The position numbers were made by a program, and so were the translations under genes. Of a DNA stretch of 13,698 bases, positions 1 through 13,698 are shown in pieces. Each line of letters starts with the position of its first letter. Within the stretch, counting starts at the first letter, position 1. Origin of the DNA: Betaproteobacteria bacterium (GTDB lineage: Bacteria > Pseudomonadota > Gammaproteobacteria > Burkholderiales > Gallionellaceae); contig JAGWMH010000023.1 of NCBI GenBank assembly GCA_028871775.1, positions 1 to 13,698 on the forward strand, written 5' to 3'. Below the pieces are notes generated by a model, which had not been told where the DNA came from, made no database searches, and saw nothing but the letters and a program-made list of their open reading frames with translations.

Positions 1-1
1 T

Positions 2-1630: not shown

Positions 1631-1647
1631 ATTATTGAAAGTCCGAA

Positions 1648-3042
1648 ATGTTACCCACCCTAGTCCTTGTCGGCCGACCCAACGTCGGCAAATCCACGCT
1701 GTTCAACCGCCTCACGCGCAGCCGCGACGCCCTGGTGGCCGATCAGCCGGGGCTGACACGCGACCGCCACTACGGGCGCGGGCGCATCGGCGAGCGGCCA
1801 TTCCTGGTGGTGGATACCGGCGGTCTTGAGCCGGTGGCCAAGGAAGGCATCCTGTACGAGATGGCCAAGCAGACGCGGCAGGCGGTGGACGAAGCCGACA
1901 TCGTGCTGTTTCTGGTGGATGGCCGCCAGGGCTGCACGCCGCAGGACAAGATCATCGCCGAGCAATTGCGCAAGACCGGGCGCCCGGTACTGCTGCTGGT
2001 CAACAAGGCCGAGGGCATGCAGCGCGCCGCCGTCACCAACGAATTTTTCGAGCTGGGGCTGGGCGAACCGCTGCCGATTTCTTCGGCGCATGGCGACAAT
2101 GTGAGCGAGATGGTGGAGCTCGCGCTGGAAGATTTTCCGCCGCAGGCGGAAGGCGAAGAAGAAAAATCCGACCATCCCAAGATCGCCATCGTCGGTCGCC
2201 CGAACGTCGGCAAGTCCACGCTGGTGAACGCCATTCTGGGCGAAGAACGGGTGATAGCCTTCGACCAGCCCGGCACCACGCGCGACAGCATCTACATCGA
2301 TTTCGAGCGGGCCGGCCGCCAGTACACCATCATCGACACCGCCGGAGTGCGCCGCCGCGGCAAGGTGGACGAAGCGATCGAAAAATTTTCCGTGATCAAG
2401 ACCCTGCAGGCTGTGGAAGACGCCAACGTGGTGGTGCTGGTGGTGGATGGGCGCGACCAGATCACCGAGCAGGACGCGCACATCGCCGACTTCGTGCTGG
2501 AAGCCGGGCGCGCGCTGGTGCTGGCGGTGAACAAGTGGGACGGGCTGGATGATTACCAGCGCGACACAGTCAAGCGCGACATCGAGCGCAAGCTGCATTT
2601 CCTCGGCTTCGCCAAGCTGCATTTCATCTCCGCCCTGCACGGCAACGGCATACCCGGCGTGCTGAAATCGGTGGACGAGGCATATGCCGCCGCGATGGCC
2701 AAGCTGCCCACGCCGCAGCTCACGCGCGTGCTTATCGCCGCAGTGGAAAAGCAGCAGCCCCCGCGCTCCCGGTTCCGCCCCAAGCTGCGCTATGCCCACC
2801 AGGGCGGCAGCAACCCGCCGCTGATCGTGATTCACGGCAGCGCGCTGGACAAAATTCCGGACAGCTACCGCCGCTACCTGGAGCGCACTTTCTGCGAAGC
2901 TTTCAAGCTGCAAGGCACCCCGCTCAGGATCGAATTCAAGGCGGGCAAGAATCCCTTCGAGGGCAGGAAGCGTCCGCTCACCGAAAGCGAGCAGCGCAGC
3001 GCTCACCGCGCGCGCATAAGAGGGCGCAGGTTGTATGGCTGA
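1648..3042 (+). CDS. der: Ribosome biogenesis GTPase Der (EngA)
   Basis: The product is 464 residues with the tandem GTPase architecture unique to Der. The first G domain has GRPNVGKST at residues 9-17, DTGG at 56-59 and NKAE at 119-122. The second repeats GRPNVGKST at 183-191, followed by DTAG and NKWD. An acidic linker (EGEEEK) separates the two, and a KH-like domain with a basic tail follows. Der binds the 50S precursor and uses GTP to assist its maturation in the cytoplasm. The ATG at 1648 gives the conserved start ([15 protein letters not shown]). The ribosome binding site is weak, only GAAAG about 7 bases upstream. All key GTPase residues are present. In many betaproteobacteria hfq follows der; here a long non-coding gap and an unrelated operon follow. 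Confidence 0.97.
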
Positions 3043-3087
3043 AACCGCCGGAGAACAAGCGTAGCGGCAACCCAGAGATTTTGGCGC

Positions 3088-3184
3088 TGTCATTGCGAGC
3101 GAAGCGCGGCAATCTAAAGGTTCTGGCGGCGGATTATTGTGTACTTGGCTGGATTGCCACGGCCCTGCGGGCCTAGCAATGACA
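3088..3184. repeat. REP/MITE-like inverted-repeat element after der
   Basis: A left arm starting TGTCATTGCGAGCGAAGCG and ending GGCAATCT (3088-3115) faces a right arm starting GGATTGCC and ending GCAATGACA (3151-3184). The outer 9 bases (TGTCATTGC/GCAATGACA) and an inner block (GGCAATC/GATTGCC) are perfectly complementary, while the arm centres diverge. The CATTGCGAGCGAAG...GGCAATC pattern is familiar from short dispersed intergenic repeats in many bacterial genomes. It starts about 45 bases after der and could act as a transcript-end hairpin for the housekeeping operon. Confidence 0.7.
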
Positions 3185-3504
3185 ATGCTTAGGGGCTGTT
3201 CCGGTTAAAGAAATTGGTTGTGCCAGCACCCTCAATCTGGTTAATGGATCATTTGCGATAAACATGGGTGGCTTTGCCGTAATCGATCATGTGCTCGAAC
3301 TTTCAATACCATAGTCTGCCGAGACGTGCAGCGCAAATTGGGTTCATCAGAAAGCATTCCGCTTACGCTCTTCGAGCTTCAGGAATACCTCCATCACTTC
3401 ACGGCAACCACGCCTAACTACCTGTGCCCGTTGCACTTCTTTTTAACGGTGATTCGTATCGCCAGCAGGCATTTCTATTCGGGGAAAAACCGACTTTACT
3501 GCAT
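3185..3504. other. Non-coding stretch, no supported gene; possibly decayed sequence
   Basis: About 320 bases between the REP-like element and the promoter region of the next operon. Base use is more AT-rich than in the flanking genes. No reading frame on either strand has a family motif, a good ribosome binding site and sensible length together. The reverse strand around 3335-3425 reads as a short basic, charged helix-like peptide (...VMEVFLKLEERKR...) in a frame closed by stops on both sides. It may be a remnant of a decayed gene or mobile element. GGGGCTGTTCC at about 3192 resembles the ends of some insertion sequences, but I found no matching partner. Confidence 0.5.
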
Positions 3505-3528
3505 GGGTTAAACATTTTCTTTTAACCC
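3505..3528. promoter_or_regulatory. Perfect 8-bp dyad just upstream of the -35, candidate activator site
   Basis: GGGTTAAA (3505-3512) and TTTAACCC (3521-3528) are exact inverted copies separated by 8 bases. The dyad ends two bases before the -35 hexamer of the operon promoter, and its centre is about 48 bases upstream of the expected transcription start. That is a usual place for a dimeric activator. It does not match an FNR-type TTGAT-N4-ATCAA site. The stem is AT-rich and has no following T-run, so a terminator is less likely. Confidence 0.5.
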
Positions 3529-3530
3529 TC

Positions 3531-3558
3531 TTGTCAATATTACCAACTTCTTTATAAT
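3531..3558 (+). promoter_or_regulatory. Sigma70-type promoter of the fumarate reductase/Kor/Hdr operon
   Basis: TTGTCA at 3531-3536 (five of six consensus bases) and a consensus TATAAT at 3553-3558 are separated by 16 bases. Transcription would start at about 3565, giving a leader of about 115 nt before the ATG at 3680. It is the only strong promoter-like sequence seen in the 637-base gap before the first gene. Confidence 0.75.
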
Positions 3559-3586
3559 CCGTCGTTCGCAAAAAATCGAGCGACGG
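3559..3586. promoter_or_regulatory. Dyad overlapping the transcription start, candidate operator or leader hairpin
   Basis: CCGTCGTTCG (3559-3568) and CGAGCGACGG (3577-3586) pair over ten positions with a single G-U wobble around an 8-nt A-rich loop. The dyad begins at the base right after the -10 hexamer and covers the expected start site. As DNA it could be a repressor operator; as RNA only the downstream part would be transcribed. No poly-T run follows, so it is not a terminator. Confidence 0.55.
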
Positions 3587-3621
3587 AGTCGGCTGACTCA
3601 CTTAACTCAAGATATTGGCTC

Positions 3622-3638
3622 CAGCCGCTGTGCGGCTG
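3622..3638 (+). promoter_or_regulatory. Leader hairpin in the operon 5' UTR
   Basis: CAGCCGC and GCGGCTG form a perfect 7-bp stem around a TGT loop. A weaker four-pair stem (TTCC/GGAA, 3643-3656) follows before the ribosome binding site AAGG at 3668-3671. I do not recognise a known riboswitch class. The structure may stabilise the mRNA or modulate translation. Confidence 0.45.
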
Positions 3639-3679
3639 AGGATTCCGGTGCGGGAACAAGATATTTTAAGGTGTTTATT

Positions 3680-4423
3680 ATGGCGAGCATGCCGGCAGTA
3701 AAAACGATAAGTCCACCGACTTCACAGGCTGACGAGAAATACGGCGAAACGAAGGGACGCTTGATCACTATCTCCATCATGGGCAAGGCCTATGAGGTGC
3801 CGGCCGAGGCGACCATCATGGGGGCCATCGAATATGCCGGGCACCAGATCATCCGCGGCGCCGGTTGCCGCGAAGGTTATTGCGGCGCCTGCGCCACCAT
3901 CTACAGACTTCTTGGAGACTACAAGATACGCACCGGCCTTGCCTGCATGACCCTGGTCGAGGAGGGCATGACGCTTGCCCAGATACCCTATGTTCCGGCC
4001 GAGAAGGCGATCTACGACATCGAGAAACTCAAGCCCAACGTCAGCGCCATCGAGCAGATGTATCCGTCGGTTTTCCGCTGTGTCGCGTGCAATACCTGCA
4101 CCCGGTCCTGTCCGCAGGGGCTGCAGGTCATGGATTACGTCCAGGCCGCCAAACGGGGCGATATTGCGACGGTGATGGACCTGTCCTTCGACTGTGTTGT
4201 CTGCGGGCTGTGCATGCTGCGTTGCCCCGCCGAGATCACGCAACCCCTGATGGGTATCATGGCGAAGCGTTTGTATGGACGCTATCTGCGCAAGGACAGT
4301 CCGGAACTGGCGGTGCGGGTCAAGGCCGTGGAGGAGGGCGCTTATAATGATGAATATGCCGAATTGATGGCGATGAGCCGCGAGGCTTTGTCGAAACGTT
4401 ACTACGCCCGCGATTCGGAATAA
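3680..4423 (+). CDS. Iron-sulfur protein with one [2Fe-2S] and two [4Fe-4S] motifs, FrdB/TfrB-like
   Basis: The product is 247 residues. An N-terminal plant-type ferredoxin fold carries Cys63, Cys68, Cys71 and Cys89 for a [2Fe-2S] cluster, as in succinate dehydrogenase/fumarate reductase iron-sulfur subunits. A helical domain follows with two complete CxxCxxCxxxCP motifs (Cys134/137/140/144 and Cys172/175/178/182). Canonical SdhB/FrdB has one [4Fe-4S] and one [3Fe-4S] site, so this is a variant closer to the N-terminal part of thiol:fumarate reductase TfrB or to HdrC. It should carry electrons between a partner and the flavoprotein encoded next. There is no membrane segment. The ATG at 3680 is preferred because AAGG lies 8 bases upstream; a GTG at 3671 overlaps that site and would add only three residues. 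First gene of the operon. Confidence 0.85.
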   Translation: MASMPAVKTISPPTSQADEKYGETKGRLITISIMGKAYEVPAEATIMGAIEYAGHQIIRGAGCREGYCGACATIYRLLGDYKIRTGLACMTLVEEGMTLAQIPYVPAEKAIYDIEKLKPNVSAIEQMYPSVFRCVACNTCTRSCPQGLQVMDYVQAAKRGDIATVMDLSFDCVVCGLCMLRCPAEITQPLMGIMAKRLYGRYLRKDSPELAVRVKAVEEGAYNDEYAELMAMSREALSKRYYARDSE

Positions 4424-4452
4424 CCAGCACACGGACTTAGAGAGGATTCAAG

Positions 4453-6168
4453 ATGTATCCAGAGTATATGGCGGAGTCGCTCCGCAAAGTGGCCCAAACT
4501 CGCCCCAGACGTTTGGAACTGGCCCGCAAGCCGGACCCCGTCTACCCGCCCATGAACGCGGAGGAGCGCCGCGCCGTGCTGGAAGGTTTTCACCCGGATT
4601 TCGAACCCAGTGCCCGCCGTACGGTGCGCGTCGGCCCCAATCGGGATGAATCGTTGACTGCCGAGGTGGCCGACCTGCTGGAGTCCCACTCCTGGCTGCG
4701 CAGCGAGCAGGTGAATCTCGACAAACCGGATTTCGAGACCGACCTGCTAATCATCGGCGGCGGCGGCGCCGGCTGCAATGCCGCGCTGGTTGCCATGAAG
4801 GAACACGGCATGCGTTCGATCATCGCCACCAAGCTGCGCATGGGCGATTCCAACAGCATGATGTCACAGGGCGGCATGCAGGCCGCCGTGTCGCGCACCG
4901 ACTCGCCGACCCGCCACTATCTGGATGCCATCGGCGGCGGCCATTTCGAAAACAAGCCGGAATTGGTCAGGGCGCTTACCGAGGATGGCCCCGGAGTGGT
5001 CAAGTGGCTCGAAGACCTGGGGGTGGTGTGGGACAAGGAAGCGGACGGCTCGATGAAGGTCATGCACGGCGGTGGCACCTCGCGCAAGCGCATGCTGTCA
5101 TGCCGCGACTACACCGGCGCAATGATCATGCGCACCCTGATGGATGAGGTGCGCAACCACCCCGACATGATTGAGGTAAAGGAGTTCATGCCGGCCGTTG
5201 AGTTGATCATGGATAACAAGGGCCGTTGCGCCGGCGCGGTTCTCTACAGCATGGACAGCGAGGAGTTCTTCACGGTCAAGGCCAAGTCCACCGTGGTCGC
5301 CACCGGTGGCTATGGACGCCTGCACATCCGCGGCTTCGATACCACCAACCACTACGGCGCAACCGGTGACGGGCTGGTGATGGCCTACCGCGCGGGCGCC
5401 AAGCTGATGTACATGGATTCTGTCCAGTACCACCCGACGGGTGTTTCGTTTCCCGAACAGATCGCCGGCTTCCTGGTCACCGAGGCGATCCGCGGCGCGG
5501 GTGGCCAGCCGCTGAACAAGGAAGGCGAACTGTTCGTTTTTCCGCGCGAACCGCGCGACGTCGAGGCAGCAGCAATCATCCGCGAATGCGTGCAGAACGG
5601 CGGCGGCATCCAGACGCCTTCCGGGCGCGTCGGCGTGTGGCTGGATTCCCCGCTCATCGACATGCTGCACGGCGAGGGCTACACCGACAAGCACTTCCCG
5701 GCCATGTATCGCCAGTTCATCCGCTATGGCATAGACATCGCCAAGCTGCCGATGCTGATCTACCCGTCGCTGCATTACCAGAATGGCGGCATCGAAATCA
5801 ATGCGCGTTGCGAGACCGACATCCCCGGCCTGTACGTGGCAGGTGAGGCCAGCGGCGGACTGCACGGCCGCAACCGGCTGATGGGCAATTCGGTGCTCGA
5901 CTACAACGTGTTCGGGCGCAGGGCAGGCCGCTATGCCGGCGAATACGCCAAGACGGTCAAGCTCGGCAAGCTCAGCCTGGCTCATCTCGACGCCTACGAG
6001 AAGGAGTTGGCGGATGCCGGCGTGCAAACCAGTCTGGTGACCCCGACCCTGTTGCCGTCTTATGCGCCCGAGGATGTCAAGAAGCGCCAGCTGCTGCGCG
6101 GCGCCAACACACTGCCCGGGGCTTCGGTGCTGCAAAACCGGCTGCATGATGAAAGGGTCGGCGCCTGA
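4453..6168 (+). CDS. Fumarate reductase/succinate dehydrogenase-family flavoprotein
   Basis: The product is 571 residues. After an N-terminal extension of about 95 residues comes the FAD Rossmann motif GGGGAG (102-107), then HPTG (327-330), the catalytic Arg in EAIRGAGG (Arg347), His441 in HYQNGG and Arg475 in GRNRL. These match the substrate-binding and proton-shuttle residues of FrdA/SdhA, so it should interconvert fumarate and succinate. The His that carries FAD covalently in FrdA/SdhA aligns with Asn134 (SNSMMSQGG), so FAD is probably non-covalent. Only about 95 residues follow GRNRL, so the usual large C-terminal helical domain is missing or reduced. There is no twin-Arg signal or membrane segment, so it should be cytoplasmic. 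Its partner is the iron-sulfur protein upstream (29-base gap, GAGAGGA ribosome site). L-aspartate oxidase is a less likely alternative. Confidence 0.87.
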   Translation: MYPEYMAESLRKVAQTRPRRLELARKPDPVYPPMNAEERRAVLEGFHPDFEPSARRTVRVGPNRDESLTAEVADLLESHSWLRSEQVNLDKPDFETDLLIIGGGGAGCNAALVAMKEHGMRSIIATKLRMGDSNSMMSQGGMQAAVSRTDSPTRHYLDAIGGGHFENKPELVRALTEDGPGVVKWLEDLGVVWDKEADGSMKVMHGGGTSRKRMLSCRDYTGAMIMRTLMDEVRNHPDMIEVKEFMPAVELIMDNKGRCAGAVLYSMDSEEFFTVKAKSTVVATGGYGRLHIRGFDTTNHYGATGDGLVMAYRAGAKLMYMDSVQYHPTGVSFPEQIAGFLVTEAIRGAGGQPLNKEGELFVFPREPRDVEAAAIIRECVQNGGGIQTPSGRVGVWLDSPLIDMLHGEGYTDKHFPAMYRQFIRYGIDIAKLPMLIYPSLHYQNGGIEINARCETDIPGLYVAGEASGGLHGRNRLMGNSVLDYNVFGRRAGRYAGEYAKTVKLGKLSLAHLDAYEKELADAGVQTSLVTPTLLPSYAPEDVKKRQLLRGANTLPGASVLQNRLHDERVGA

Positions 6169-6175
6169 GGCGCCG
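6159..6175 (+). other. Hairpin whose loop is the flavoprotein stop codon
   Basis: CGGCGCC and GGCGCCG form a perfect 7-bp GC stem around the three-base loop TGA, which is the flavoprotein stop codon (6166-6168). No T-run follows, and the next gene starts 18 bases after the stop. It could mark an mRNA processing or stabilising point inside the operon, or be chance in GC-rich sequence. Confidence 0.45.
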
Positions 6176-6186
6176 GAATCAGACTG

Positions 6187-6720
6187 ATGGCCCATATTGA
6201 TGACAGAGTGATCGAACTGGCTCGCACTGCGCTCAGCTTCGAGTACGGTGAGGAGCACTTCTACCGCCATGCCGCCGAGATGATCCAGAATCCCAAAGGC
6301 AAAGCCATGTTCCTGCGTCTGGCTCAGGAAGAACCGGGGCACATGGATGATATGCACAGGTTGTTCGGCGCCATCATCGGCAAGGAGGAGTGGCAACGCC
6401 TTGTCGCCGAAGAAGCGGCGAATGCCCACCCGTCGAAAGTGATTGCCGAGATGGAAGCTGCCATTGCCCATCGCGGCATGATAGCAGTCGCCGACGACAC
6501 CCAGGCATTGCGCATGGCCATGGAGTTGGAACGGCGGGCCATCCACCTGCTCAAGGATATGGCCGACCACACCCAGGACCCTGCCATTATCGAACTGATA
6601 GGCAAGATGATCATGGAGGAATGCTCCCAATACGATGCCCTCCAGGCGCAGCTGGATAGCGTGCTGAACGTCGGGTTATGGCTGGATATGCCCGAGTTCC
6701 GCATGGACGGGAAGTATTAA
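6187..6720 (+). CDS. Ferritin-like/rubrerythrin-type di-iron protein
   Basis: The product is 177 residues, nearly all helical. It has the four-helix pattern of COG1633-type ferritin-like proteins: Glu-rich helix 1 (FEYGEEHFYRHAAE, about 18-31), ExxH in helix 2 (Glu49, His52), MELERR in helix 3 and EECSQ in helix 4. In rubrerythrin the last motif is ExxH; here it is Glu145-x-x-Gln148, so one His ligand is replaced by Gln and the metal site may be modified. There is no rubredoxin domain or CxxC motif. Possible roles are peroxide or oxygen removal protecting the many Fe-S clusters of the operon, iron storage for their assembly, or a small structural subunit. The start is preceded only by a weak GGA. 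The next gene begins directly after the stop. Confidence 0.75.
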   Translation: MAHIDDRVIELARTALSFEYGEEHFYRHAAEMIQNPKGKAMFLRLAQEEPGHMDDMHRLFGAIIGKEEWQRLVAEEAANAHPSKVIAEMEAAIAHRGMIAVADDTQALRMAMELERRAIHLLKDMADHTQDPAIIELIGKMIMEECSQYDALQAQLDSVLNVGLWLDMPEFRMDGKY

Positions 6721-7140
6721 ATGGAAACCACCTTGCGCATAACTTCGGCTCGTGCCGGAAGCGACTTTGTTTCCAGGATCGAAAAGATTAGCGGCCAGAA
6801 GCTGCTGGCCTGCTACCAGTGCGGCAAATGTTCTGCCGGTTGTCCGATGGCGGCCCACATGGATGTGCTGCCCAACCAGATCATCCGCATGGCCCAGCTG
6901 GGCATGAAGGAACAGTTGCTGGCAGCGCGCTCCATCTGGATGTGTGTCTCCTGCCTGACCTGCAATTCGCGTTGCCCGAAGGACATAAAAATCGCCGAGG
7001 TCATCGAAGCGCTGCGCAAGGCGGCGCTGGGCGGCGGCGAGCGCAACGACCATCTGCATATCATGGAATTGCCTTCCGAGGCGCGCAGTGTATTGCCGCC
7101 GATCGCCACCATCAGCGCCATGCGCAAACTGACCTCCTGA
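6721..7140 (+). CDS. hdrC: Heterodisulfide reductase subunit C-like protein
   Basis: The product is 139 residues with two complete CxxCxxCxxxCP motifs (Cys31/34/37/41 and Cys75/78/81/85), each binding a [4Fe-4S] cluster in HdrC. In HdrABC complexes HdrC passes electrons from HdrA to the active-site subunit HdrB, whose gene follows here. It lacks the [2Fe-2S] domain of the operon's first gene product, so the operon encodes two related dicluster proteins. The Met-Gly-Gln-rich central region (about 50-70) is the linker usual between the clusters. The ATG immediately follows the previous stop, with GGGAAG 6 bases upstream, which suggests coupled translation. Confidence 0.85.
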   Translation: METTLRITSARAGSDFVSRIEKISGQKLLACYQCGKCSAGCPMAAHMDVLPNQIIRMAQLGMKEQLLAARSIWMCVSCLTCNSRCPKDIKIAEVIEALRKAALGGGERNDHLHIMELPSEARSVLPPIATISAMRKLTS

Positions 7141-7153
7141 TGGGATGCCCCTG

Positions 7154-8071
7154 ATGGAAAATGAGAACAAACCGATGAAGCTTGCTTATTACCCCGGCTG
7201 CACACTGAAAAACCAGGCGACCAACTTCGATGTTTCCACGGTTTCATCGATGGCAAAACTGGATGTGGAGGTCGAGGAACTGGATCGCTGGAATTGCTGC
7301 GGCACGGTGCATGCACTGAACTCCGACAACGTCATGAACCGGGTGGCGCCGATCACCAACATGATTCGCGTCAAGGAAGCTCAGGCCAGAACAGAAGGCA
7401 TGGCCAGCGAATTCATGACTTCCTGCGCGATGTGTTACAACACGCTCAAGCGTGCCAACATCGACGTGAAGAAGCGTGCCGACGCGCTGGAAACCATCAA
7501 CGACTTCCTCTCCCTCGAAACAACCAAATACGAGGGCGACGTTGACGTCCTTCACCTGCTCGAGTACCTGCGCGACCGTGTCGGCTTCGACAAGCTGGCC
7601 GAGAGAGTGACAAAACCGCTCAAGGGCTTGCGCGTGGCCTGCTACTACGGTTGTCTGCTGGTGCGCCCGAAAGAGGTCGCCTTCGACGATGTCGAGAACC
7701 CGATGATCATGGAAAATCTGGTTCGCGCCCTCGGCGCCACACCCGTGGATTTTTCGCACAAGACCGAGTGCTGCGGCGCCTACCAGACGGTTGACAAGCC
7801 GGATGTCATCGCCGAACGCACCGACAAGATCATGGGCTCGGCGCATGAGGAACAGGCCGACCTGGTGGTGGTGAGCTGCCCGCTGTGCGCCTTCAACCTT
7901 GACTTCCGGCAGGATGACGCAAAGCGCCTCAACCCGGACTTCCACAATATGCCGGTGCTCTACTTCACCCAGTTGATGGCGCTGGCGTTCGGTTGCGACG
8001 AGTCCGCACTGCGTTTCGATCTGCAGCATATCGACCCGCTGCCAGTCTTGGCGGCTCGCGGCCTGGGCTAA
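7154..8071 (+). CDS. hdrB: Heterodisulfide reductase subunit B-like protein
   Basis: The product is about 305 residues with both cysteine-rich CCG domains of HdrB: Cys16, Cys48-Cys49, Cys91-x-x-Cys94, then Cys163, Cys167, Cys206-Cys207 and Cys242-x-x-Cys245. In methanogen HdrB these hold the non-cubane [4Fe-4S] clusters that reduce the CoM-S-S-CoB disulfide. All core cysteines are kept, so an active site for a disulfide or other two-electron acceptor is likely, but the substrate here is unknown. It could instead be the relay from HdrC to the fumarate-reductase-like pair, as HdrB-like sequence is fused in methanogen TfrB. In-frame starts also exist at 7145 and 7175; I chose 7154 for its spacing from GATGGG, but 7175, which gives MKLAYYPGC, is also plausible. 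Confidence 0.85.
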   Translation: MENENKPMKLAYYPGCTLKNQATNFDVSTVSSMAKLDVEVEELDRWNCCGTVHALNSDNVMNRVAPITNMIRVKEAQARTEGMASEFMTSCAMCYNTLKRANIDVKKRADALETINDFLSLETTKYEGDVDVLHLLEYLRDRVGFDKLAERVTKPLKGLRVACYYGCLLVRPKEVAFDDVENPMIMENLVRALGATPVDFSHKTECCGAYQTVDKPDVIAERTDKIMGSAHEEQADLVVVSCPLCAFNLDFRQDDAKRLNPDFHNMPVLYFTQLMALAFGCDESALRFDLQHIDPLPVLAARGLG

Positions 8072-8081
8072 GGAGGAAGGC

Positions 8082-8345
8082 ATGTATTTCAACGACCTCA
8101 AACAGATTCGCGGCAAAGTCTACATCAGCAATGACTGGTGCAAGGGATGCGGTTTCTGCGTGCAGTTTTGCCCCAAAGGGGTGCTGGACATGTCTCCCGA
8201 ATACAACGCCAAGGGTTACCACCCGCCCTATGTGAAAAACCCCGATGCCTGCCACGATTGCATGTTTTGCCAGATGATCTGCCCGGAGTTTTCCATCTAC
8301 GTGAAAATGGAAGAAGTCACCAATAAAGGAGAAACGAATAAGTGA
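8082..8345 (+). CDS. korD: 2x[4Fe-4S] ferredoxin subunit of 2-oxoacid:ferredoxin oxidoreductase
   Basis: The product is 87 residues with two CxxCxxCxxxCP motifs (Cys20/23/26/30 and Cys57/60/63/67), the classical bacterial dicluster ferredoxin arrangement. It lies directly before the alpha subunit, as the delta (ferredoxin) subunit does in four-subunit oxidoreductases. It would take or give low-potential electrons at the thiamine enzyme and may exchange them with HdrA. It has one of the strongest ribosome binding sites of the operon (AAGGAGG, about 8072-8078). The stop overlaps the next start by four bases (GTGA). A free ferredoxin is possible, but the position favours KorD. Confidence 0.87.
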   Translation: MYFNDLKQIRGKVYISNDWCKGCGFCVQFCPKGVLDMSPEYNAKGYHPPYVKNPDACHDCMFCQMICPEFSIYVKMEEVTNKGETNK

Positions 8346-9505
8346 AGACTGTCACCGCTGATCCCAAAGGGGTCGACTCCGGCCCGCATTTCATGGATGG
8401 CGACCACGCGCTCGCCGAAGGCGCCTTGGCTGCCGGCTGCCGGTTCTTTGCCGGCTATCCCATTACCCCTTCGACCGAGACCGCCGAGCGCTTTGCCGAG
8501 CGTGCACCGGAAGTCGGGGCGATGTTCATCCAGATGGAAGACGAACTCGCCTCCATCGCTGCCCTGATCGGTGGCGCATGGGGTGGGCAGAAATGCATGA
8601 CCGTGACCTGCGGCCCCGGCTTTTCCCTGATGACAGAAAATCTCGGCCTGGCTTGCATGACCGAAACTCCGATGGTGATCGCCAACGTACAGCGCGGCGG
8701 ACCGTCAACCGGCCTGCCCACGCTGACCGCTCAGCAGGACATGATGCAGGCGCGCTATGGCCCGCATGGCGACAACATGATCATCGCCCTGTGCCCGGAC
8801 AGCCCGCAGGAATGTTTTGATCTGACCGTCGAAGCCTTCAACCTGTCGGAATTCTACCGCGTGCCGGTTATCATCCTGACCGACGAGACCGTCGGCCACA
8901 TGCACGAGAAGGTAGTCATTCCGCCCGCTGACCAGATCAAGGTGGTACCGCGCAACAACTATAACGGCCCCAAAGAGGACTGCCGCCCCTACAAGTTTGA
9001 CAGCCAGGGCGGACACCCGATGGTGCGTGCGGGTGACGGATACAACTTTCACATTACCGGCCTGACTCACAACGAGAAGGGTTATCCAGCGATGACTGCC
9101 GAGCAGAGCAAGGTCGTCGTAACCCACCTGATGGAAAAGATCAACGGCAATGCCGACAAGATTATCCGCCTCGACGAGGATCAGATCGATGGCGCCGATG
9201 TGGTAGTGGTGTCGTATGGCATCACTTCCCGGATCGCCGTCAAGGCCATCCAGGATGCGCGCAAGGAAGGTATCAAGGTCGGTTCGCTGCGCCTGATCAC
9301 CATCTGGCCGTTCTGCGAGAAGCGCATCCGCGAACTGGCTCCCAAGGTGAAGGCATTCGTGGTGCCCGAGATCAACTACGGCCAGATGGTCAAGGAAGTG
9401 GAGCGTTGTGCAGGCGGTCGCAAGGTAATCAGCGTGAATCACTGCGGTGGCGCGGTGCACGACCCGCAGGTAATCCTGGACGCCATCAGAAAGGCAATCC
9501 AATGA
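8342..9505 (+). CDS. korA: 2-oxoacid:ferredoxin oxidoreductase alpha subunit, probably 2-oxoglutarate
   Basis: The product is 387 residues, with the alpha-subunit family motifs GYPITPSTE (from residue 38), TCGPGFSLMTEN and QRGGPSTGLPT (Arg118-Gly124). The alpha chain supplies the pyrimidine domain and binds the 2-oxoacid/CoA side of the thiamine enzyme. The complex interconverts 2-oxoglutarate + CoA with succinyl-CoA + CO2 + reduced ferredoxin. The start is GTG at 8342, overlapping the korD stop, with AAAGGAGA (8325-8332) upstream; the next gene starts in an ATGA overlap. Substrate specificity cannot be read from sequence: the branched-chain VorB type is closely related. The neighbouring fumarate reductase genes favour 2-oxoglutarate. 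Cytoplasmic. Confidence 0.88.
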   Translation: MKTVTADPKGVDSGPHFMDGDHALAEGALAAGCRFFAGYPITPSTETAERFAERAPEVGAMFIQMEDELASIAALIGGAWGGQKCMTVTCGPGFSLMTENLGLACMTETPMVIANVQRGGPSTGLPTLTAQQDMMQARYGPHGDNMIIALCPDSPQECFDLTVEAFNLSEFYRVPVIILTDETVGHMHEKVVIPPADQIKVVPRNNYNGPKEDCRPYKFDSQGGHPMVRAGDGYNFHITGLTHNEKGYPAMTAEQSKVVVTHLMEKINGNADKIIRLDEDQIDGADVVVVSYGITSRIAVKAIQDARKEGIKVGSLRLITIWPFCEKRIRELAPKVKAFVVPEINYGQMVKEVERCAGGRKVISVNHCGGAVHDPQVILDAIRKAIQ

Positions 9506-10683
9506 GTACTGAAATCGGAAAATTCAAGGCAGGCAGCCCTATGGCCGACACACTGCGCATGGACCGGATGCCGCATATCTGGTGTCCCGGCTGCGGCATC
9601 GGCTCCGAGGTAAACTCCTTTGCAGATGCCGTCAAGCGCAGCGGTATCGACCCCAAGAAGCTGGTCGTGGTGTCGGGCATCGGTTGCACCGGGCGTGTTG
9701 CGGGCTATGTCAATTTTGACTCGATCCACACCACGCATGGCCGGGCCATTCCCGTGGCCACCGGCGTCAAGCTGGCCAACCCGGAACTGACGGTGGTGGT
9801 GTTCAGCGGCGAGGGCGACCTGGCCGGGATCGGCGGCAACCATCTGATCCATGCCGCACGGCGCAACATGGATCTGGTGGTCATCTGCAACAACAACTTC
9901 ACCTATGGCATGACCGGCGGCCAGGTAACGCCGACCACCCCCGGTGGGGCCTCTGCCTCGACTACGCCTTACGGCAATTACGAATATCCGTTCAGCCTGC
10001 CTTTCCTGGCCGATGCCGCAGGTGCCACCTACATCGCACGCTGGACCTCGATGCATTCGCGCAACGTCACCCAGTCGATCGAGGAAGCGCTGTTGCGCAA
10101 GGGCTTCTCTTTCATCGAGATCATCTCGCCCTGTCCGACGCTCTACCTGCGCCGCAACCGCCTCGGCGATGGCGTCGACCAGCTGCAGAACTACCAGGAC
10201 AACTCGATACTCAAGCATGGTGCCGACACCCGCGAGACGGCCATCGACTACCAGGGCAAGATCGTCATCGGCAAGTTCGTCGAAAAGAACAAGCCTACTT
10301 ATCTCGAAGCCTCCGACAAGTGCAGCATCAAGCTGGTAGGGGACGATTATCAGCTTTATGGCAAGACCATTCCCGAACGTGAGGCCGAGGAAAAAGCCGA
10401 GAAGGAGAGGATCGCCGCTCGCCGGGCCGCGATGGCAGCAGCGGAAGCGCAGGAACAGGCAGTAGCCGCAAAACCACGAAAAACCTCTGCGCCTGCGGCA
10501 AAAAAGGCGGCTGCCGCACCGAGAGCAGCGAAGAAGGCTGCGACGAAAGCCAAGGCCAAGCCCGCCGTTAAAAAGGCTCCGGCCAAGAAGGCAGCGCCCA
10601 AGGCTCCGGCCAAGGCAGCAAAAAAGGCTGCACCCAAGGCAACCGCCAAGACCAAGGCCGCGCCTAAAAAGACCCGCAAGTAG
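9502..10683 (+). CDS. korB: 2-oxoacid:ferredoxin oxidoreductase beta subunit with histone-H1-like tail
   Basis: The product is 393 residues. The catalytic core is residues 1 to about 290: WCPGCG (Cys28, Cys31), GIGCTGR (Cys62) and SPCPT (Cys211) match the four-Cys [4Fe-4S] site of archaeal beta subunits. GEGDLAGIGGNH plus NNNFTYG form the thiamine diphosphate/Mg site. The usual GDG appears as GEG (Glu104 for Asp). About 104 extra residues follow: a charged Glu/Arg helix (about 294-322), then a Lys/Ala/Pro-rich run of PAKKA-type repeats to the end, like the tails of histone H1-like bacterial proteins or PhaF/AlgP. Typical beta subunits stop where this tail begins. The ATG at 9502 overlaps the korA stop; an upstream in-frame extension into korA is not needed. 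Role of the tail unknown. Confidence 0.88.
   Translation: MSTEIGKFKAGSPMADTLRMDRMPHIWCPGCGIGSEVNSFADAVKRSGIDPKKLVVVSGIGCTGRVAGYVNFDSIHTTHGRAIPVATGVKLANPELTVVVFSGEGDLAGIGGNHLIHAARRNMDLVVICNNNFTYGMTGGQVTPTTPGGASASTTPYGNYEYPFSLPFLADAAGATYIARWTSMHSRNVTQSIEEALLRKGFSFIEIISPCPTLYLRRNRLGDGVDQLQNYQDNSILKHGADTRETAIDYQGKIVIGKFVEKNKPTYLEASDKCSIKLVGDDYQLYGKTIPEREAEEKAEKERIAARRAAMAAAEAQEQAVAAKPRKTSAPAAKKAAAAPRAAKKAATKAKAKPAVKKAPAKKAAPKAPAKAAKKAAPKATAKTKAAPKKTRK
10471..10680 (+). repeat. Low-complexity Lys/Ala/Pro-coding repeats in the korB 3' end
   Basis: The stretch is built of degenerate GCC/AAG/CCG codons encoding PAKKA-like units. AAGGCTCCGGCCAAG occurs identically at 10573-10587 and 10600-10614, and shorter AAAAAGGC / AAGGCAGC units recur. 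Such sequence is prone to slippage and unequal exchange, so tail length may vary between strains while the frame stays intact. Confidence 0.75.
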
Positions 10684-10694
10684 GAATCGAGCGC

Positions 10695-11264
10695 ATGAGC
10701 ACACAAGAAATCAGGTTTTCAGGGTTCGGCGGCCAAGGCATCATTCGCTGCGCCCTGATTACGGGCAAGGCGCTGGCCCTGTACGACGACAAGTTCGCCA
10801 CCATGACCCAGGCCTTCGGGCCTGAGGCGCGCGGCAGCGCCTGTGCCGCGCAGCTCGTGGTTTCCGACGAGCGTGTCCTGTATCCCTATATCACACACCC
10901 GGGAATTCTCATGGCGCTGTCCCAGGAGGCTTACGACAAGTATTACAGCGAGCTGCCCAAGGGGGGAACGCTGATCGTCGAGCAGGAACTGGTGAAGCTG
11001 CGCAGCGACCATCCTGATCTCAGATTGATGCGGGTGCCGGCGACCCGCTATGCCGAAGAACTGGGCAACCGCCTGTTCACCAATCTCGTGGCGCTCGGCT
11101 TTTTTACTGCGGTCACCAACGTGGTCACCGCCGATGCCATGAAGAAGGCTCTGCCCGGCCTGGTTCCCGAACGTTTCCTGAAGATCAACATCAAGGCATT
11201 CGACAAGGGCTATGAGCACGGCATTCAGATGATGAACCAGAAGACCGGCGGAGCAGTGTCATGA
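10695..11264 (+). CDS. korC: 2-oxoacid:ferredoxin oxidoreductase gamma subunit
   Basis: The product is 189 residues, the usual gamma-subunit size. It begins with the family signature GFGGQGI (residues 10-16) and carries the AFGPEARGS loop at 40-48, in the place of the common SYGPEARGG. The gamma chain binds CoA and completes the KorDABC enzyme; D, A, B and C are all present here in that order. AGGA lies 9 bases before the ATG. The stop overlaps the hdrA start by four bases (ATGA at 11261-11264), so the thiamine enzyme and the Hdr electron hub are translationally coupled, which supports a joint function. Confidence 0.9.
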   Translation: MSTQEIRFSGFGGQGIIRCALITGKALALYDDKFATMTQAFGPEARGSACAAQLVVSDERVLYPYITHPGILMALSQEAYDKYYSELPKGGTLIVEQELVKLRSDHPDLRLMRVPATRYAEELGNRLFTNLVALGFFTAVTNVVTADAMKKALPGLVPERFLKINIKAFDKGYEHGIQMMNQKTGGAVS

Positions 11265-13213
11265 CGAAGAAACGCACCGGCGTATTTGTCTGCCATTGCG
11301 GCACCAACATCGCCGCCACCGTCGATGTGGCGAAAGTAGCCAAGGAGATGGCCGGCGAAGATACCGTTGCCTATACCCAGGAATACGTCTACATGTGCTC
11401 GGAGCCGGGACAGGAGTCGGTAGTCCAGGCGATCAAGGACAACAAGCTGGACAGCGTCGTTGTCACCTGCTGTTCGCCGAATCTGCATGAAAAGACTTTC
11501 CGCGACAATGCCCAGCGCGCCGGCATCAATAACTTCACCTGCGAGATCGCCAATATCCGCGAGCAGTGCAGCTGGGTTCACAATGACAAGGCCAAGGGAA
11601 CCGAGAAGGCGATCAAGATTTCGCGCGGCGTCGTGCGCCGGGTTAACCGCAACAAGCCCCTGGACACCATCGCCGTCAACGTCACGCGGCGGGCAATGGT
11701 GATAGGCGGCGGCGTCGCCGGTATCCAGGCCGCACTCGACATTGCCAACGCCGGGGTGGAGGTGGTGCTGGTCGAGAAACAGGCCACCATCGGCGGCCGC
11801 ATGCTCCAGCTCTCCGAGACCTTTCCCACGCTGGACTGTTCGCAGTGCGTTCTGTCGCCCAAGATGGTCGAGATAAAGCGCCACCCGAAGATCAAGCTGA
11901 TGACCTACAGCGAAGTGCAGGAGGTCAGCGGATCCGTGGGCAACTTCCAGGTCAAGGTCCTCAAGAAACCCACTTATGTGGATCCCGACAAATGCAAGAT
12001 CTGCGACCACTGCACCGAGGTTTGCCCGGTAGTGGTGCCGAACGAATATGAACTCAATCTGACCGCCCGGCGCGCCATCTATATCCCTTATGCACAGGCC
12101 ATTCCGGCCAGCTTCACGCTCGACGAGAGCGCATGTCTGGGCTTGAACCCCATCGTCTGCGGCAAGTGCAAGGATGTCTGCGAGGCCGGTGCCATCAATT
12201 ACGACATGCGGCCCGAGACGGTGACCGAGGATGTGGGCGCCATCGTGGTGGCGACCGGTTTCGATCTCTACGGCCAGGAGAAATTGGGCGAGCTCGGCGG
12301 CGGCAAGATCGAGGATGTGCTGGACGGCCTTCAGTTCGAGAGGCTGATTTCGGCCTCGGGCGCGACCAAGGGTCATATACTCCGGCCGTCCGACCACAAA
12401 GAGCCGAAAGAGGTGGTCTTCATCCAGTGCGCAGGATCGCGCGACCCGGCGAAGCATTGCGCCTATTGCTCCAAGATCTGCTGCATGTACACCGCCAAGC
12501 ACGCACGCCTCTACAAGAAGCATGTTCCGGACGGACGCGCCTACGTTTTTTACATCGACATCCGCTCCGGCGGCAAGGGCTACGAGGAGTTCGTGCAGCG
12601 CACCATGGAGGACGACGACACCCTCTATCTGCGCGGCCGCGTCTCCAAGCTCTACCGGCACAACGGCAAGATCCGCGTACTCGGCACCGACACCCTGACC
12701 GGGCAGAACGTGGAGATCGATGCTGACATGGTGGTGCTGGCGCTGGCCATGACGCCATCGAAGGGCACCGCAGATATCGCCAAGACCCTCAAGATCGGCC
12801 GCGACAAGGATGGCTTTCTGGCTGAGGCACATCCCAAGCTGCGGCCGGTCGAGAGCGTTACCGGCGGCATCTACCTGGCGGGTGCCGCGCAGGCCCCCAA
12901 GGACATCCCGGAGACTGTCGCCCAGGCCGGCGCGGCGGCTTCCAAAGTGATCGCGCTGCTGTCGCAGACTACCCTCAGCCGCTCGCCGCTGATCGCCAAG
13001 GTGCGCCGTTCCCATTGCACCGGCTGCGGGATGTGCGTTGAGGCCTGCCCCTTCATTGCGATCCGGCTGGAAGATGGAAAAGCTGTGGTGAACGAGGCGC
13101 TGTGCGAAGGCTGTGGCAGCTGCTCGGCTACCTGCCTGCGCGCCGCCATCGATGTCAAGAATATTACGCAGCTGCAGATCTACGAAATGATCGAAGCGAG
13201 CCTGGCATTGTGA
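11261..13213 (+). CDS. hdrA: Heterodisulfide reductase subunit A-like FAD/Fe-S protein
   Basis: The product is 650 residues, full length for HdrA. The layout is: N-terminal Cys-rich domain (CHCG at 11-14, CC near 70); FAD Rossmann motif GGGVAG (149-154); CSQC (193-196); an inserted ferredoxin (Cys245/248/251/255 and Cys292/300/303/307); a second flavin-fold segment with the DIRSGGKGYEEF signature; and a C-terminal ferredoxin (Cys586/589/592/596 and Cys615/618/621/625). HdrA is the flavin-based bifurcating subunit, splitting electron pairs between ferredoxin and HdrBC; its FAD and clusters are all intact here. HdrC and HdrB are encoded upstream and MvhD downstream, giving a full HdrABC-MvhD set interleaved with Kor genes. 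A standalone non-bifurcating HdrA role cannot be excluded. Confidence 0.92.
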   Translation: MTKKRTGVFVCHCGTNIAATVDVAKVAKEMAGEDTVAYTQEYVYMCSEPGQESVVQAIKDNKLDSVVVTCCSPNLHEKTFRDNAQRAGINNFTCEIANIREQCSWVHNDKAKGTEKAIKISRGVVRRVNRNKPLDTIAVNVTRRAMVIGGGVAGIQAALDIANAGVEVVLVEKQATIGGRMLQLSETFPTLDCSQCVLSPKMVEIKRHPKIKLMTYSEVQEVSGSVGNFQVKVLKKPTYVDPDKCKICDHCTEVCPVVVPNEYELNLTARRAIYIPYAQAIPASFTLDESACLGLNPIVCGKCKDVCEAGAINYDMRPETVTEDVGAIVVATGFDLYGQEKLGELGGGKIEDVLDGLQFERLISASGATKGHILRPSDHKEPKEVVFIQCAGSRDPAKHCAYCSKICCMYTAKHARLYKKHVPDGRAYVFYIDIRSGGKGYEEFVQRTMEDDDTLYLRGRVSKLYRHNGKIRVLGTDTLTGQNVEIDADMVVLALAMTPSKGTADIAKTLKIGRDKDGFLAEAHPKLRPVESVTGGIYLAGAAQAPKDIPETVAQAGAAASKVIALLSQTTLSRSPLIAKVRRSHCTGCGMCVEACPFIAIRLEDGKAVVNEALCEGCGSCSATCLRAAIDVKNITQLQIYEMIEASLAL

Positions 13214-13227
13214 AAGAAAGAAAATAG

Positions 13228-13662
13228 ATGTCTGAACAACAAGTTTACGAACCCCGGATCGTCGCCTTCCTGTGCAAGTGGTGCTCGTCGGCGGGCAGTG
13301 ATCTGGCTGGTGTCTCGCGCATCCAGTATCCGCCCAACGCGACGCCGATCACCGTCCCGTGCACGGGCGCCATATCGCCGATGTACATCATGTCGGCCTT
13401 CAACAAGGGGGCGGACGGTGTTCTGGTGTCGGGCTGCCATATCGGCGACTGCCACTACATCGAGGGCAATTATCTGGCGCGGCGCAAGATGAAACTGATC
13501 ATGGAGCTGCTCGAATTCATCGGCGTCGAGCCGAACCGGTTCCGTATGTCCTGGGTGTCGGCCGCCGAGGGCGCCAAGTTTGCCCAGGTCATTACGGACT
13601 TCGTCCATGATCTCCAGCCGCTCGGGCCGCAGAACAAGCTGAAAAGGGCGGAGCACTCATGA
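13228..13662 (+). CDS. mvhD: MvhD-like [2Fe-2S] subunit (FlpD family)
   Basis: The product is 144 residues. Signature elements are CKWCSSAGSD (Cys16, Cys19), Cys45 in PCTGAISP, KGADGVLVSGCH (Cys70) and GDCHY (Cys75), with GNYLARR after. In methanogens MvhD carries a [2Fe-2S] cluster and passes electrons from hydrogenase, or formate dehydrogenase, into HdrA. Family members usually have an Arg and an Asp after the third Cys (CSGRVDP); here it reads CTGAISP, a change near the docking/cluster region. No hydrogenase or formate dehydrogenase gene is visible, so the donor is unknown. The start is 14 bases after hdrA with an A/G-rich but weak ribosome site. The stop overlaps the next start (ATGA). 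Confidence 0.88.
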   Translation: MSEQQVYEPRIVAFLCKWCSSAGSDLAGVSRIQYPPNATPITVPCTGAISPMYIMSAFNKGADGVLVSGCHIGDCHYIEGNYLARRKMKLIMELLEFIGVEPNRFRMSWVSAAEGAKFAQVITDFVHDLQPLGPQNKLKRAEHS

Positions 13663-13698
13663 TCAATATCCAGGACATCCGCGATACCGCAAGGGATA
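13659..13698 (+). CDS. Start of a further operon gene, cut by the window end
   Basis: An ATG overlaps the mvhD stop in the same four-base arrangement seen elsewhere in the operon. It opens a frame of 13 codons (MINIQDIRDTARD) that runs off the window. The position after hdrA-mvhD suggests another electron-transfer subunit, perhaps the one that accepts electrons from the primary donor, but the visible part is too short to assign a family. Confidence 0.6.
   Translation, partial: MINIQDIRDTARD

What the first reader, a model, noticed from the sequence alone, without database searches (positions are those of the whole stretch)
3680..13698. Interleaved fumarate reductase, HdrABC-MvhD and 2-oxoglutarate:ferredoxin oxidoreductase operon: candidate bifurcating engine for a reductive TCA arm
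One operon encodes the enzymes for fumarate to succinate and succinyl-CoA to 2-oxoglutarate plus every subunit of a flavin-based bifurcating hub. The two steps each need one electron pair, one at fumarate potential (about +30 mV) and one at ferredoxin potential. Bifurcation by HdrA would give exactly one of each, so the reactions would be stoichiometrically matched. Run backwards, the set could combine ferredoxin and succinate electrons onto a mid-potential carrier. Four-base overlaps at korD/korA, korA/korB, korC/hdrA and mvhD/next argue for co-assembly. Family assignments are seen in sequence; the coupling is inference.
Basis: partly seen in the sequence, partly recalled or inferred. Interest (0 to 1): 0.82.

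Follow-up and report, generated by a model that had tools for sequence, protein, structure and literature searches.

The report
NADH-driven reverse TCA cycle operon
This stretch is the middle of a gene cluster for fixing carbon dioxide by running the TCA cycle backwards, in which one flavin enzyme probably splits electrons from NADH between an easy step and a hard step; the idea was published in 2019 for tubeworm symbionts, and here it turns up in a groundwater relative of iron-oxidising bacteria.

Summary
The contig stops 40 bases into flxC. Another contig of the same genome carries flxC-flxB-flxA (the NADH module), ATP-citrate lyase, aconitase and isocitrate dehydrogenase. So the window is the middle of a largely complete reductive TCA operon, in a genome that also has RuBisCO, 2-oxoglutarate dehydrogenase and succinate dehydrogenase flavoprotein. 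The bifurcation idea is in print: Rubin-Blum et al. 2019 describe the interspersed flxABCD-hdrABC/korABCD/tfrAB cluster in tubeworm symbionts and the MAG RIFOXYD12_FULL_61_37 (our L054) and propose the same electron flow; a 2024 paper adds co-expression. Added here: betaproteobacterial members; matching HdrA in 28 of 31 genomes that carry this FrdBA; linkage under several gene orders; an in-place FrdBA swap; a non-covalent-type FAD site in FrdA that favours fumarate reduction. Against a rigid complex: three genomes lack a matching HdrA, and seven Aminicenantes-type loci lack flxABC beside mvhD. Direct wiring to FrdBA rather than through DsrC is unproven. Verdict: real, well explained, a new member of a known kind.

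The parts
3671..4423 (+). frdB-like (tfrB N-terminal-type) iron-sulfur subunit, 250 aa: one plant-type [2Fe-2S] motif (residue 66) and two CxxCxxCxxxC [4Fe-4S] motifs (137, 175); no CCG domain; its only hydrophobic run (residues 165-183, mean 1.87) is the second cluster motif
4453..6168 (+). frdA-like flavoprotein, 571 aa: catalytic residues of the fumarate reductase/NadB family aligned and invariant; covalent-FAD histidine replaced by N134
   Evidence: 'rbr' also appears in the Fig. 2 legend of PMC6315080
6721..7140 (+). hdrC, 139 aa, two [4Fe-4S] motifs, no membrane domain
7145..8071 (+). hdrB, 308 aa, two complete CCG motifs (non-cubane cluster type)
8082..8345 (+). korD, 2x[4Fe-4S] ferredoxin subunit of 2-oxoglutarate:ferredoxin oxidoreductase
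8342..9505 (+). korA (alpha)
   Evidence: NF006412, above its curated cut-off
9502..10683 (+). korB (beta, TPP-binding), 393 aa with a Lys/Ala/Pro-rich C-terminal tail
10695..11264 (+). korC (gamma)
11261..13213 (+). hdrA, 650 aa, full bifurcating type with inserted and C-terminal ferredoxin domains
13228..13662 (+). mvhD/flxD, 144 aa (Pfam FlpD)
   Evidence: matches directly after hdrA in 57 relatives' places, 45-96% identical
13659..13698 (+). first 40 bases of flxC; the gene and the rest of the operon (flxC, flxB, flxA, aclB, aclA, acn, idh) lie on contig C335 of the same genome (L113)

Best explanation
The window is the central part of a reverse-TCA carbon-fixation operon, frdBA-rbr-hdrCB-korDABC-hdrA-flxDCBA-aclBA-acn-idh, in a betaproteobacterium near Gallionellaceae that also carries RuBisCO of the Calvin cycle. 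Proposed working: NADH is oxidised by FlxA/B/C; electron pairs pass through FlxD to the flavin of HdrA, which bifurcates them. The high-potential electrons go through HdrC/HdrB, most simply onward to FrdB and FrdA, reducing fumarate to succinate (E0' +33 mV). The low-potential electrons go, directly or by ferredoxin, to KorD/KorABC for reductive carboxylation of succinyl-CoA to 2-oxoglutarate. Two NADH thus drive one turn of both steps, and the product of the first (succinate, after CoA activation) is the substrate of the second. Shown: genes, order, conserved linkage, motifs, presence of other rTCA enzymes. Inferred: NADH as donor, bifurcation, the direct HdrB-to-FrdB route, physical association, direction. 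The confidence covers the whole mechanism; for the identity of the system alone it is about 0.9.
For: Same cluster as the published one: L054 is the MAG RIFOXYD12_FULL_61_37 named in PMC6315080, and its genes match the window's at 64 (FrdB), 73 (FrdA), 83 (HdrB), 87 (KorA), 78 (KorC) and 82% (HdrA). Continuation in the same genome: C335 holds flxC-flxB-flxA-aclB-aclA-acn-idh; in L114 and L115 hdrA-flxD-flxC-flxB-flxA-acl lie on one contig. 43 of 80 loci hold all three flxCBA genes. ATP-citrate lyase is strongly found in 20 of 31 surveyed genomes, in 18 of the 20 on the contig of HdrA. HdrA at 68-100% over full length in 28 of 31. Linkage survives rearrangement: proteobacterial order frdBA first, Aminicenantes order frdBA last, and L082/L116 with frdBA-hdrC about 5 kb beyond the acl gene on the same contig. 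FrdA residues H327, T343, E344, R347, R368, H441, R475 are invariant in 18 sequences and align with an SdhA of solved structure; N134 replaces the FAD-binding His, whereas the genome's own SdhA (931 bits) has the SHTVAAQGG motif. No membrane anchor among the eight window proteins scanned. Upstream of frdB in L010 lie malate dehydrogenase, pyruvate:ferredoxin oxidoreductase and RnfA genes. Energetics: fumarate +33 mV and NADH -320 mV (PMC5861303 passages); with ferredoxin near -500 mV (recalled) the two-acceptor mean is about -234 mV, so 2 NADH drive the pair with roughly 33 kJ/mol to spare. Published co-expression of the homologous cluster as an operon (PMC11636981 passages).
Against: 3 of 31 genomes with the FrdBA have no matching HdrA (G101, G103, G107); G101 and G103 have no close KorA either (35-37%), and G107 has a 70% KorA but far from its flxB-flxA-frdB-frdA. 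Seven Aminicenantes-type loci (L044, L060, L062, L068, L070, L076, L079) have mvhD directly followed by frdBA with no flxABC in the DNA held and a divergent MvhD (44-53%); only 3 of these 7 genomes hold a close FlxA elsewhere. So NADH is not shown to be the donor everywhere, and FrdBA next to MvhD or FlxA leaves open that it docks on that side rather than at HdrB. In L054 the FrdBA pair is swapped while the Hdr/Kor part is not, which speaks against an intimate co-evolved interface. DsrC is present in 29 of 31 genomes, so a DsrC-mediated high-potential branch is open. In the 2024 paper tfrAB was the exception to the shared expression pattern. The genome also holds 2-oxoglutarate dehydrogenase. 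No biochemistry exists here.
Confidence: 0.56

Rival explanations
1. Hdr-Flx is an NADH-driven bifurcating disulfide reductase: HdrB reduces the disulfide of a DsrC-like protein and HdrA reduces free ferredoxin. Reduced DsrC then serves FrdBA, and ferredoxin serves Kor, as diffusible carriers; the genes are only co-regulated.
For: HdrB keeps both complete CCG motifs and matches disulfide-reducing HdrB of solved structure. DsrC is found in 29 of 31 genomes against 1 of 14 controls, two copies in the window's genome. The authors of PMC6315080 give this as their alternative. FrdBA is swappable.
Against: In the 27 genomes with both, no listed DsrC match lies within 50 kb of the matching HdrA (coordinates compared); it is on the same contig only in G082, G092 and the one-chromosome G104 and G105. 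DsrC is expected anyway in sulfur-metabolising proteobacteria (recalled). G085 (L015) has the cluster and no DsrC match, though it may be incomplete. FrdB has no CCG domain, so FrdBA alone shows no thiol-oxidising site.
Confidence: 0.22
2. The system runs oxidatively: electrons from 2-oxoglutarate (low potential) and succinate (high potential) are confurcated onto NAD+ or another mid-potential acceptor in an anaerobic oxidative TCA cycle.
For: All components are in principle reversible; the six surveyed genomes with the Aminicenantes-type order (G104-G109) have neither a RuBisCO nor an OGDH match nor a strong ATP-citrate lyase match, so the rTCA reading is weaker there.
Against: Mean potential of the two donors (about -234 mV) is too positive for NAD+ (-320 mV). 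FrdA lacks the covalent-FAD His, and loss of covalent FAD impairs succinate oxidation more than fumarate reduction in E. coli FrdA mutants (recalled). In the window's genome SdhA and OGDH already cover the oxidative route. The operon goes on to ATP-citrate lyase.
Confidence: 0.09
3. No bifurcation couples the two steps: FlxBA passes NADH electrons straight to FrdBA, and Kor draws ferredoxin reduced elsewhere (Rnf, hydrogenase); the Hdr part serves an unrelated substrate.
For: L057 keeps flxB-flxA-frdB-frdA with no hdrABC or kor in the DNA held and no matching HdrA in its chromosome; flxA is next to frdB in the Aminicenantes order; frdB2-frdA2-nuoF sets link a related FrdBA to another NADH module.
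Against: In 28 of 31 genomes the full-length bifurcating HdrA is kept, with kor placed between hdrB and hdrA in both main gene orders.
Confidence: 0.09
4. The hdr genes belong to a sulfur-oxidising sHdr system or a methanogen-type heterodisulfide reductase.
For: HdrABC names; DsrC in the genome.
Against: HdrA is the long bifurcating type (5odc_A 651 bits) and matches the short 349-aa flavoprotein 6tjr_A at only 132 bits. Kor and Frd genes are not part of sHdr sets (recalled). NCBIfam methanogen HdrB/HdrC equivalog cut-offs are not reached.
Confidence: 0.03

Closest known systems
HdrABC-FlxABCD-KorABCD-TfrAB rTCA cluster of tubeworm symbionts, Thioflavicoccus mobilis and MAG RIFOXYD12_FULL_61_37 (Rubin-Blum et al. 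2019, PMC6315080)
   Same: Same genes, kor between hdrBC and hdrA, frd/tfr and acl adjacent, rbr listed, RuBisCO in the same genome, same proposed electron flow
   Different: Betaproteobacterial host; FrdBA of another sub-clade than in L054/L074/L078; pntAB not looked for, an rnfA gene seen upstream in the relative L010 only
MvhAGD-HdrABC of methanogens (5odc) and the formate-linked HdrABC complexes
   Same: HdrA full-length 651 bits, HdrB with both CCG motifs, HdrC, MvhD
   Different: Donor module is NADH-type Flx, not hydrogenase; proposed acceptor fumarate, not CoM-S-S-CoB
FlxABCD-HdrABC of Desulfovibrio (Ramos et al. 2015; seen only as a reference, content recalled)
   Same: FlxD/MvhD, AsrA-like FlxB, AsrB-like NAD-binding FlxA, Fe-S FlxC, full HdrABC
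   Different: Interspersed with kor, frd and acl; the Desulfovibrio role is in ethanol metabolism
Thiol:fumarate reductase TfrAB of methanogens
   Same: FrdA's best NCBIfam match is TfrA (339 bits); FrdB, HdrC and HdrB each match parts of TfrB
   Different: Below the equivalog cut-offs; FrdB has no CCG domain, which sits in separate HdrB
8-methylmenaquinol:fumarate reductase SdhABE
   Same: HdrB scores nearly as well on the SdhE model (170 bits) as on HdrB (175 bits)
   Different: All below cut-off; no quinone site or anchor shown; the rest of the operon is Hdr/Flx

Membership tests
rTCA cluster with HdrABC-FlxABCD-KorABCD-TfrAB (Rubin-Blum 2019) | korABCD interspersed with hdrABC, tfr/frdAB adjacent | tested here: met
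   L054 is one of the paper's own genomes
rTCA cluster with HdrABC-FlxABCD-KorABCD-TfrAB (Rubin-Blum 2019) | flxABCD present | tested here: met
   flxD in window; flxC start at 13659; flxCBA on C335 of the same genome; one contig in relatives L114, L115
rTCA cluster with HdrABC-FlxABCD-KorABCD-TfrAB (Rubin-Blum 2019) | ATP-citrate lyase, aconitase, isocitrate dehydrogenase in the cluster | tested here: met
   C335; the 900-aa large subunit is named by position and recall, its own family matches are CoA-ligase models below cut-off
rTCA cluster with HdrABC-FlxABCD-KorABCD-TfrAB (Rubin-Blum 2019) | RuBisCO in the same genome | tested here: met
   G000:C162, 416 bits
Bifurcating HdrABC | full-length HdrA with FAD domain, inserted and C-terminal ferredoxin domains; HdrB with two CCG motifs; HdrC with two [4Fe-4S] | tested here: met
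Bifurcating HdrABC | electron bifurcation activity | not testable with these tools
   needs purified protein
Fumarate reductase flavoprotein family | catalytic His/Thr-Glu/Arg/Arg/His/Arg set | tested here: met
   invariant in 18 sequences, aligned to solved SdhA and NadB; assignment of roles recalled from Fcc3/FrdA literature
Quinone-linked SdhA/FrdA (covalent FAD, membrane anchor) | FAD-binding His and an anchor subunit | tested here: not met
   N134 in place of His; no anchor among the eight window proteins scanned
Thiol:fumarate reductase TfrAB | TfrB with C-terminal CCG domains; TfrA/TfrB equivalog scores | tested here: not met
   no CCG in FrdB; TfrA 339 of 718 bits, TfrB 34 of 385 bits
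2-oxoglutarate:ferredoxin oxidoreductase, 4 subunits | KorA, B, C, D of the 2-oxoglutarate type | tested here: met
   four subunits found, best models 2-oxoacid/2-oxoglutarate; of the NCBIfam models only KorA's passes its curated cut-off; substrate not testable here

The most novel reading that the evidence does not exclude
A single soluble assembly, HdrABC-FlxABCD-KorABCD-FrdAB, wires one NADH-bifurcating flavin directly to two consecutive TCA enzymes without diffusible carriers, so that fumarate reduction pays for succinyl-CoA carboxylation at a fixed 1:1 ratio; and the module has spread, with its carbon-fixation operon, through Gallionellaceae-like betaproteobacteria that also keep the Calvin cycle, giving them a switchable second CO2 fixation pathway.
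Probability: 0.28. Interest if true: 0.75.

Novelty: new member of a known kind. Interest (0 to 1): 0.42.

Why it matters
If the coupling is real, the reductive TCA cycle in these organisms pays for its most unfavourable step with the energy of fumarate reduction; that would lower the cost of CO2 fixation from NADH. The betaproteobacterial members widen the set of lineages with both Calvin and reverse TCA genes from the vent symbionts and Chromatiaceae of the 2019 paper to groundwater Gallionella/Sideroxydans/Hydrogenophilales-type bacteria. The genomes where the parts separate, the loci without flxABC and the in-place FrdBA swap are natural test cases.

Tried and rejected
Rejected: chance or mis-assembly (40 of 80 relatives hold all ten genes); sHdr or methanogen-type role; quinone-linked SdhAB; replacement of a missing 2-oxoglutarate dehydrogenase (the window's genome has it, split over C223 and C210; 19 of 31 genomes with the FrdBA have it).

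Led nowhere: the CCG family search of the own genome found HdrB here and one 745-aa protein on C20, not followed up. DsrC presence did not settle the two routes. Distance correlations between six subunits (r 0.85-0.93) do not discriminate coupling from common descent. Searches for this cluster in Gallionellaceae, Betaproteobacteria or Aminicenantes showed no title or abstract start that describes it; only the top 12-20 of up to 137 papers were listed per search, and one search found none; two candidates (PMC6137239, PMC8305228) were checked by passages only and the passages do not describe it. The library holds only open-licence papers, so this is weak evidence of absence. No structure prediction was run.

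Dropped before counts: of the 80 loci (the best 80 of 139 confirmed), 11 miss only hdrC, at or beyond the edge of the fetched DNA, L011 misses only frdB and L018 only mvhD, both at ends; of the other 27, 22 reach a locus end before the missing genes, on my reading, and L041, L057, L059, L075 and L082 do not. L082 is linked on the same contig; L075 is undecided. The 31 genomes were chosen by me from loci that carry the FrdA (30 of 80) plus the window's genome, so they say nothing about genomes without FrdA. Four of the 24 ATP-citrate lyase matches (G106-G109) are weak (E 1e-7 to 1e-6) and I do not count them; PF00016 also matches RuBisCO-like proteins (B. subtilis rings in the control) and G085's match is a fragment. 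In an even draw of 80 genomes of the order 2 of 80, the window's own and G067, hold an FrdA at 80% or more.

Full report
What is there. The window is one whole contig (C293, 13,698 bases) of a 2.04 Mb, 365-contig draft genome, 96% complete. A TPR protein of the YfgM kind, bamB and der (the YfgM name by eye) precede an operon of eleven complete genes and the start of a twelfth, all on the + strand: frdB, frdA, a rubrerythrin-like gene, hdrC, hdrB, korD, korA, korB, korC, hdrA, mvhD/flxD, and 40 bases of flxC.

What lies beyond the contig end. In relatives such as L010 and L045 mvhD is followed by three genes: a 343-aa double [4Fe-4S] protein, a roughly 345-aa protein related to sulfhydrogenase beta/AsrA, and a roughly 275-aa NAD-binding protein related to sulfhydrogenase gamma/AsrB. 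These are the FlxC, FlxB and FlxA parts of an NADH module (naming after PMC6315080 and recall of Ramos et al. 2015). 43 of 80 loci hold all three, 14 hold two. In the window's own genome they open contig C335 (L113), whose first bases repeat the window's last bases with a few mismatches, as strain variants would, and are followed by the citrate-binding subunit of ATP-citrate lyase, a 900-aa CoA-ligase-like protein taken as its large subunit (by position and recall), aconitase and a monomeric isocitrate dehydrogenase. In L115 a succinyl-CoA ligase alpha gene lies about 1.3 kb further on. In L010 malate dehydrogenase, pyruvate:ferredoxin oxidoreductase and rnfA lie upstream of frdB; whether the window's genome has these was not tested. 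The operon therefore encodes most steps from fumarate back to acetyl-CoA.

Genome setting. The same genome has RuBisCO (C162, 416 bits), 2-oxoglutarate dehydrogenase E1 in two contig-end pieces (C223, C210), an SdhA at 931 bits (cut-off 727) with the usual SHTVAAQGG flavin-attachment motif (L088), and two DsrC genes. So the operon is not a replacement for a missing oxidative cycle; a second, low-oxygen or autotrophic mode is more likely.

How conserved it is. A scan with an 18-sequence FrdA alignment gave 80 named loci, among them Nitrosomonadales/Gallionellaceae, Hydrogenophilales, Rhodocyclaceae, Gammaproteobacteria including a Lamellibrachia symbiont, Rhodospirillales and Aminicenantes. 40 of 80 hold all ten genes; 11 more miss only hdrC, at the edge of the fetched DNA; most of the rest are cut by locus ends. 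There are two main gene orders, frdBA first (Proteobacteria) and frdBA last (Aminicenantes), and a third in L082, where frdBA-hdrC lies about 5 kb past the acl gene on the contig that holds hdrB-kor-hdrA-flx-acl. Of 31 genomes carrying the FrdBA, 28 have HdrA at 68% identity or more over its length; the exceptions are G101 (L059), G103 (L041) and G107 (L057, a single-contig chromosome that keeps flxB-flxA-frdB-frdA and has a 70% KorA more than 1 Mb away). ATP-citrate lyase is strongly matched in 20 of 31, in 18 of these on HdrA's contig; RuBisCO in 24 of 31; OGDH in 19 of 31; DsrC in 29 of 31. In an even draw of 80 genomes of the order, an FrdA at 80% or more is found in 2 of 80, the window's own included: the system is patchy.

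Results against a uniform system. In seven Aminicenantes-type loci (L044, L060, L062, L068, L070, L076, L079) mvhD is followed directly by frdBA, flxABC is absent from the DNA held, and MvhD is only 44-53% identical to the window's. Of their genomes 3 of 7 hold a FlxA at 74-76% elsewhere; the other four show at best 38-43%. There the donor may differ, and FrdBA beside MvhD or FlxA leaves open that it docks on the donor side.

Modularity. In L054 FrdA groups with L074 and L078 (support 100/100), while HdrA groups with a mostly betaproteobacterial set of 14 rows that also holds L030 and L034 (100/98); identities agree (FrdB 64, FrdA 73 but HdrB 83, KorA 87, HdrA 82% to the window). The FrdBA pair was exchanged in place while the slot was kept. 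I read this as selection for having an FrdBA there, but it also weakens the case for a finely co-evolved interface.

Mechanism. HdrA is the full bifurcating type, HdrB keeps both CCG motifs, FlxABC supplies an NADH site. FrdA keeps the family's catalytic residues but has N134 where SdhA/FrdA bind FAD covalently; enzymes of this kind and mutants of E. coli FrdA without the covalent bond work mainly as fumarate reductases (recalled). No anchor subunit is seen among the eight proteins scanned; FrdB's one hydrophobic run is its second cluster motif. With NADH at -320 mV and fumarate at +33 mV (PMC5861303 passages) and ferredoxin near -500 mV (recalled), two NADH can serve fumarate and ferredoxin with about 33 kJ/mol to spare, while the reverse reaction onto NAD+ is uphill by the same amount. 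The DsrC route stays open: in the 27 genomes with both, DsrC is never within 50 kb of HdrA, but it is nearly always present. Shown: genes, order, motifs, linkage. Inferred: donor, bifurcation, route from HdrB to FrdB, direction.

Comparison with what is known. Rubin-Blum et al. 2019 (PMC6315080; I saw the abstract, passages, and parts 1 and 2 of 4 of the text) describe this cluster and propose, in the legend of Fig. S5, that HdrA bifurcates NADH electrons to KorABCD and TfrAB, or by way of ferredoxin and DsrC. The MAG they name, RIFOXYD12_FULL_61_37, is our L054. A 2024 paper (PMC11636981; passages only) reports operon-like co-expression in the Riftia symbiont, with tfrAB as an exception. Searches for the cluster in Gallionellaceae or Aminicenantes listed no description in the open-licence library.

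Verdict. The addition is a new host group, the missing NADH module, and a first test of how far the parts separate.

Noticed in passing
L087 (G000:C80) 1-5653; also L093, L094, L134-L140: A second set in the same genome: korA-korB-frdB2-frdA2-nuoF (FrdA2 44% identical to the window's FrdA, NuoF with FMN/NADH and [4Fe-4S] domains). frdB2-frdA2-nuoF is together in 10 of 10 loci looked at, with korAB-like genes beside it in 8 of 10, so FrdBA and a 2-oxoacid oxidoreductase are linked again through a different NADH module.
   Followed up: partly
L054 10001-18586: In-place replacement of the frdBA pair inside the operon of the published MAG RIFOXYD12_FULL_61_37, shown by conflicting FrdA and HdrA trees.
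   Followed up: yes
L044, L060, L062, L068, L070, L076, L079: Seven Aminicenantes-type loci with hdrCB-korDABC-hdrA (cut off in L070), then a divergent mvhD and frdBA directly after it, without flxABC; 4 of the 7 genomes show no close FlxA at all.
   Followed up: partly
L057 7334-11665: A single-contig Aminicenantes chromosome keeps flxB-flxA-frdB-frdA without hdrABC or kor nearby and without a matching HdrA, while a 70% KorA lies more than 1 Mb away: a possible NADH:fumarate reductase without bifurcation.
   Followed up: partly
L059 4100-7543: A pyruvate carboxylase gene (1813 bits, cut-off 965) follows frdBA-hdrC; a gene with a similar start follows frdBA in L075 (by eye).
   Followed up: partly
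L010 183-8568: Upstream of frdB in this relative: malate dehydrogenase, a 1201-aa pyruvate:ferredoxin oxidoreductase and rnfA, further parts of a reverse TCA gene neighbourhood.
   Followed up: partly
window 13659-13698 and the head of L113: The window's end and the head of C335 overlap with a few mismatches, so strain variation probably broke the assembly inside the operon.
   Followed up: yes
window 10300-10683: KorB ends in a long Lys/Ala/Pro-rich tail; in many relatives only about 70-80% of the protein aligns, so the tail is variable.
   Followed up: no
window 6187-6720: The rubrerythrin-like gene has a match in 37 of 80 loci, among them all of L005-L037; it is missing from L046, L074 and L078 and from the Aminicenantes-type loci except a 37% match in L063. 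Possibly oxygen protection of the low-potential enzymes.
   Followed up: partly
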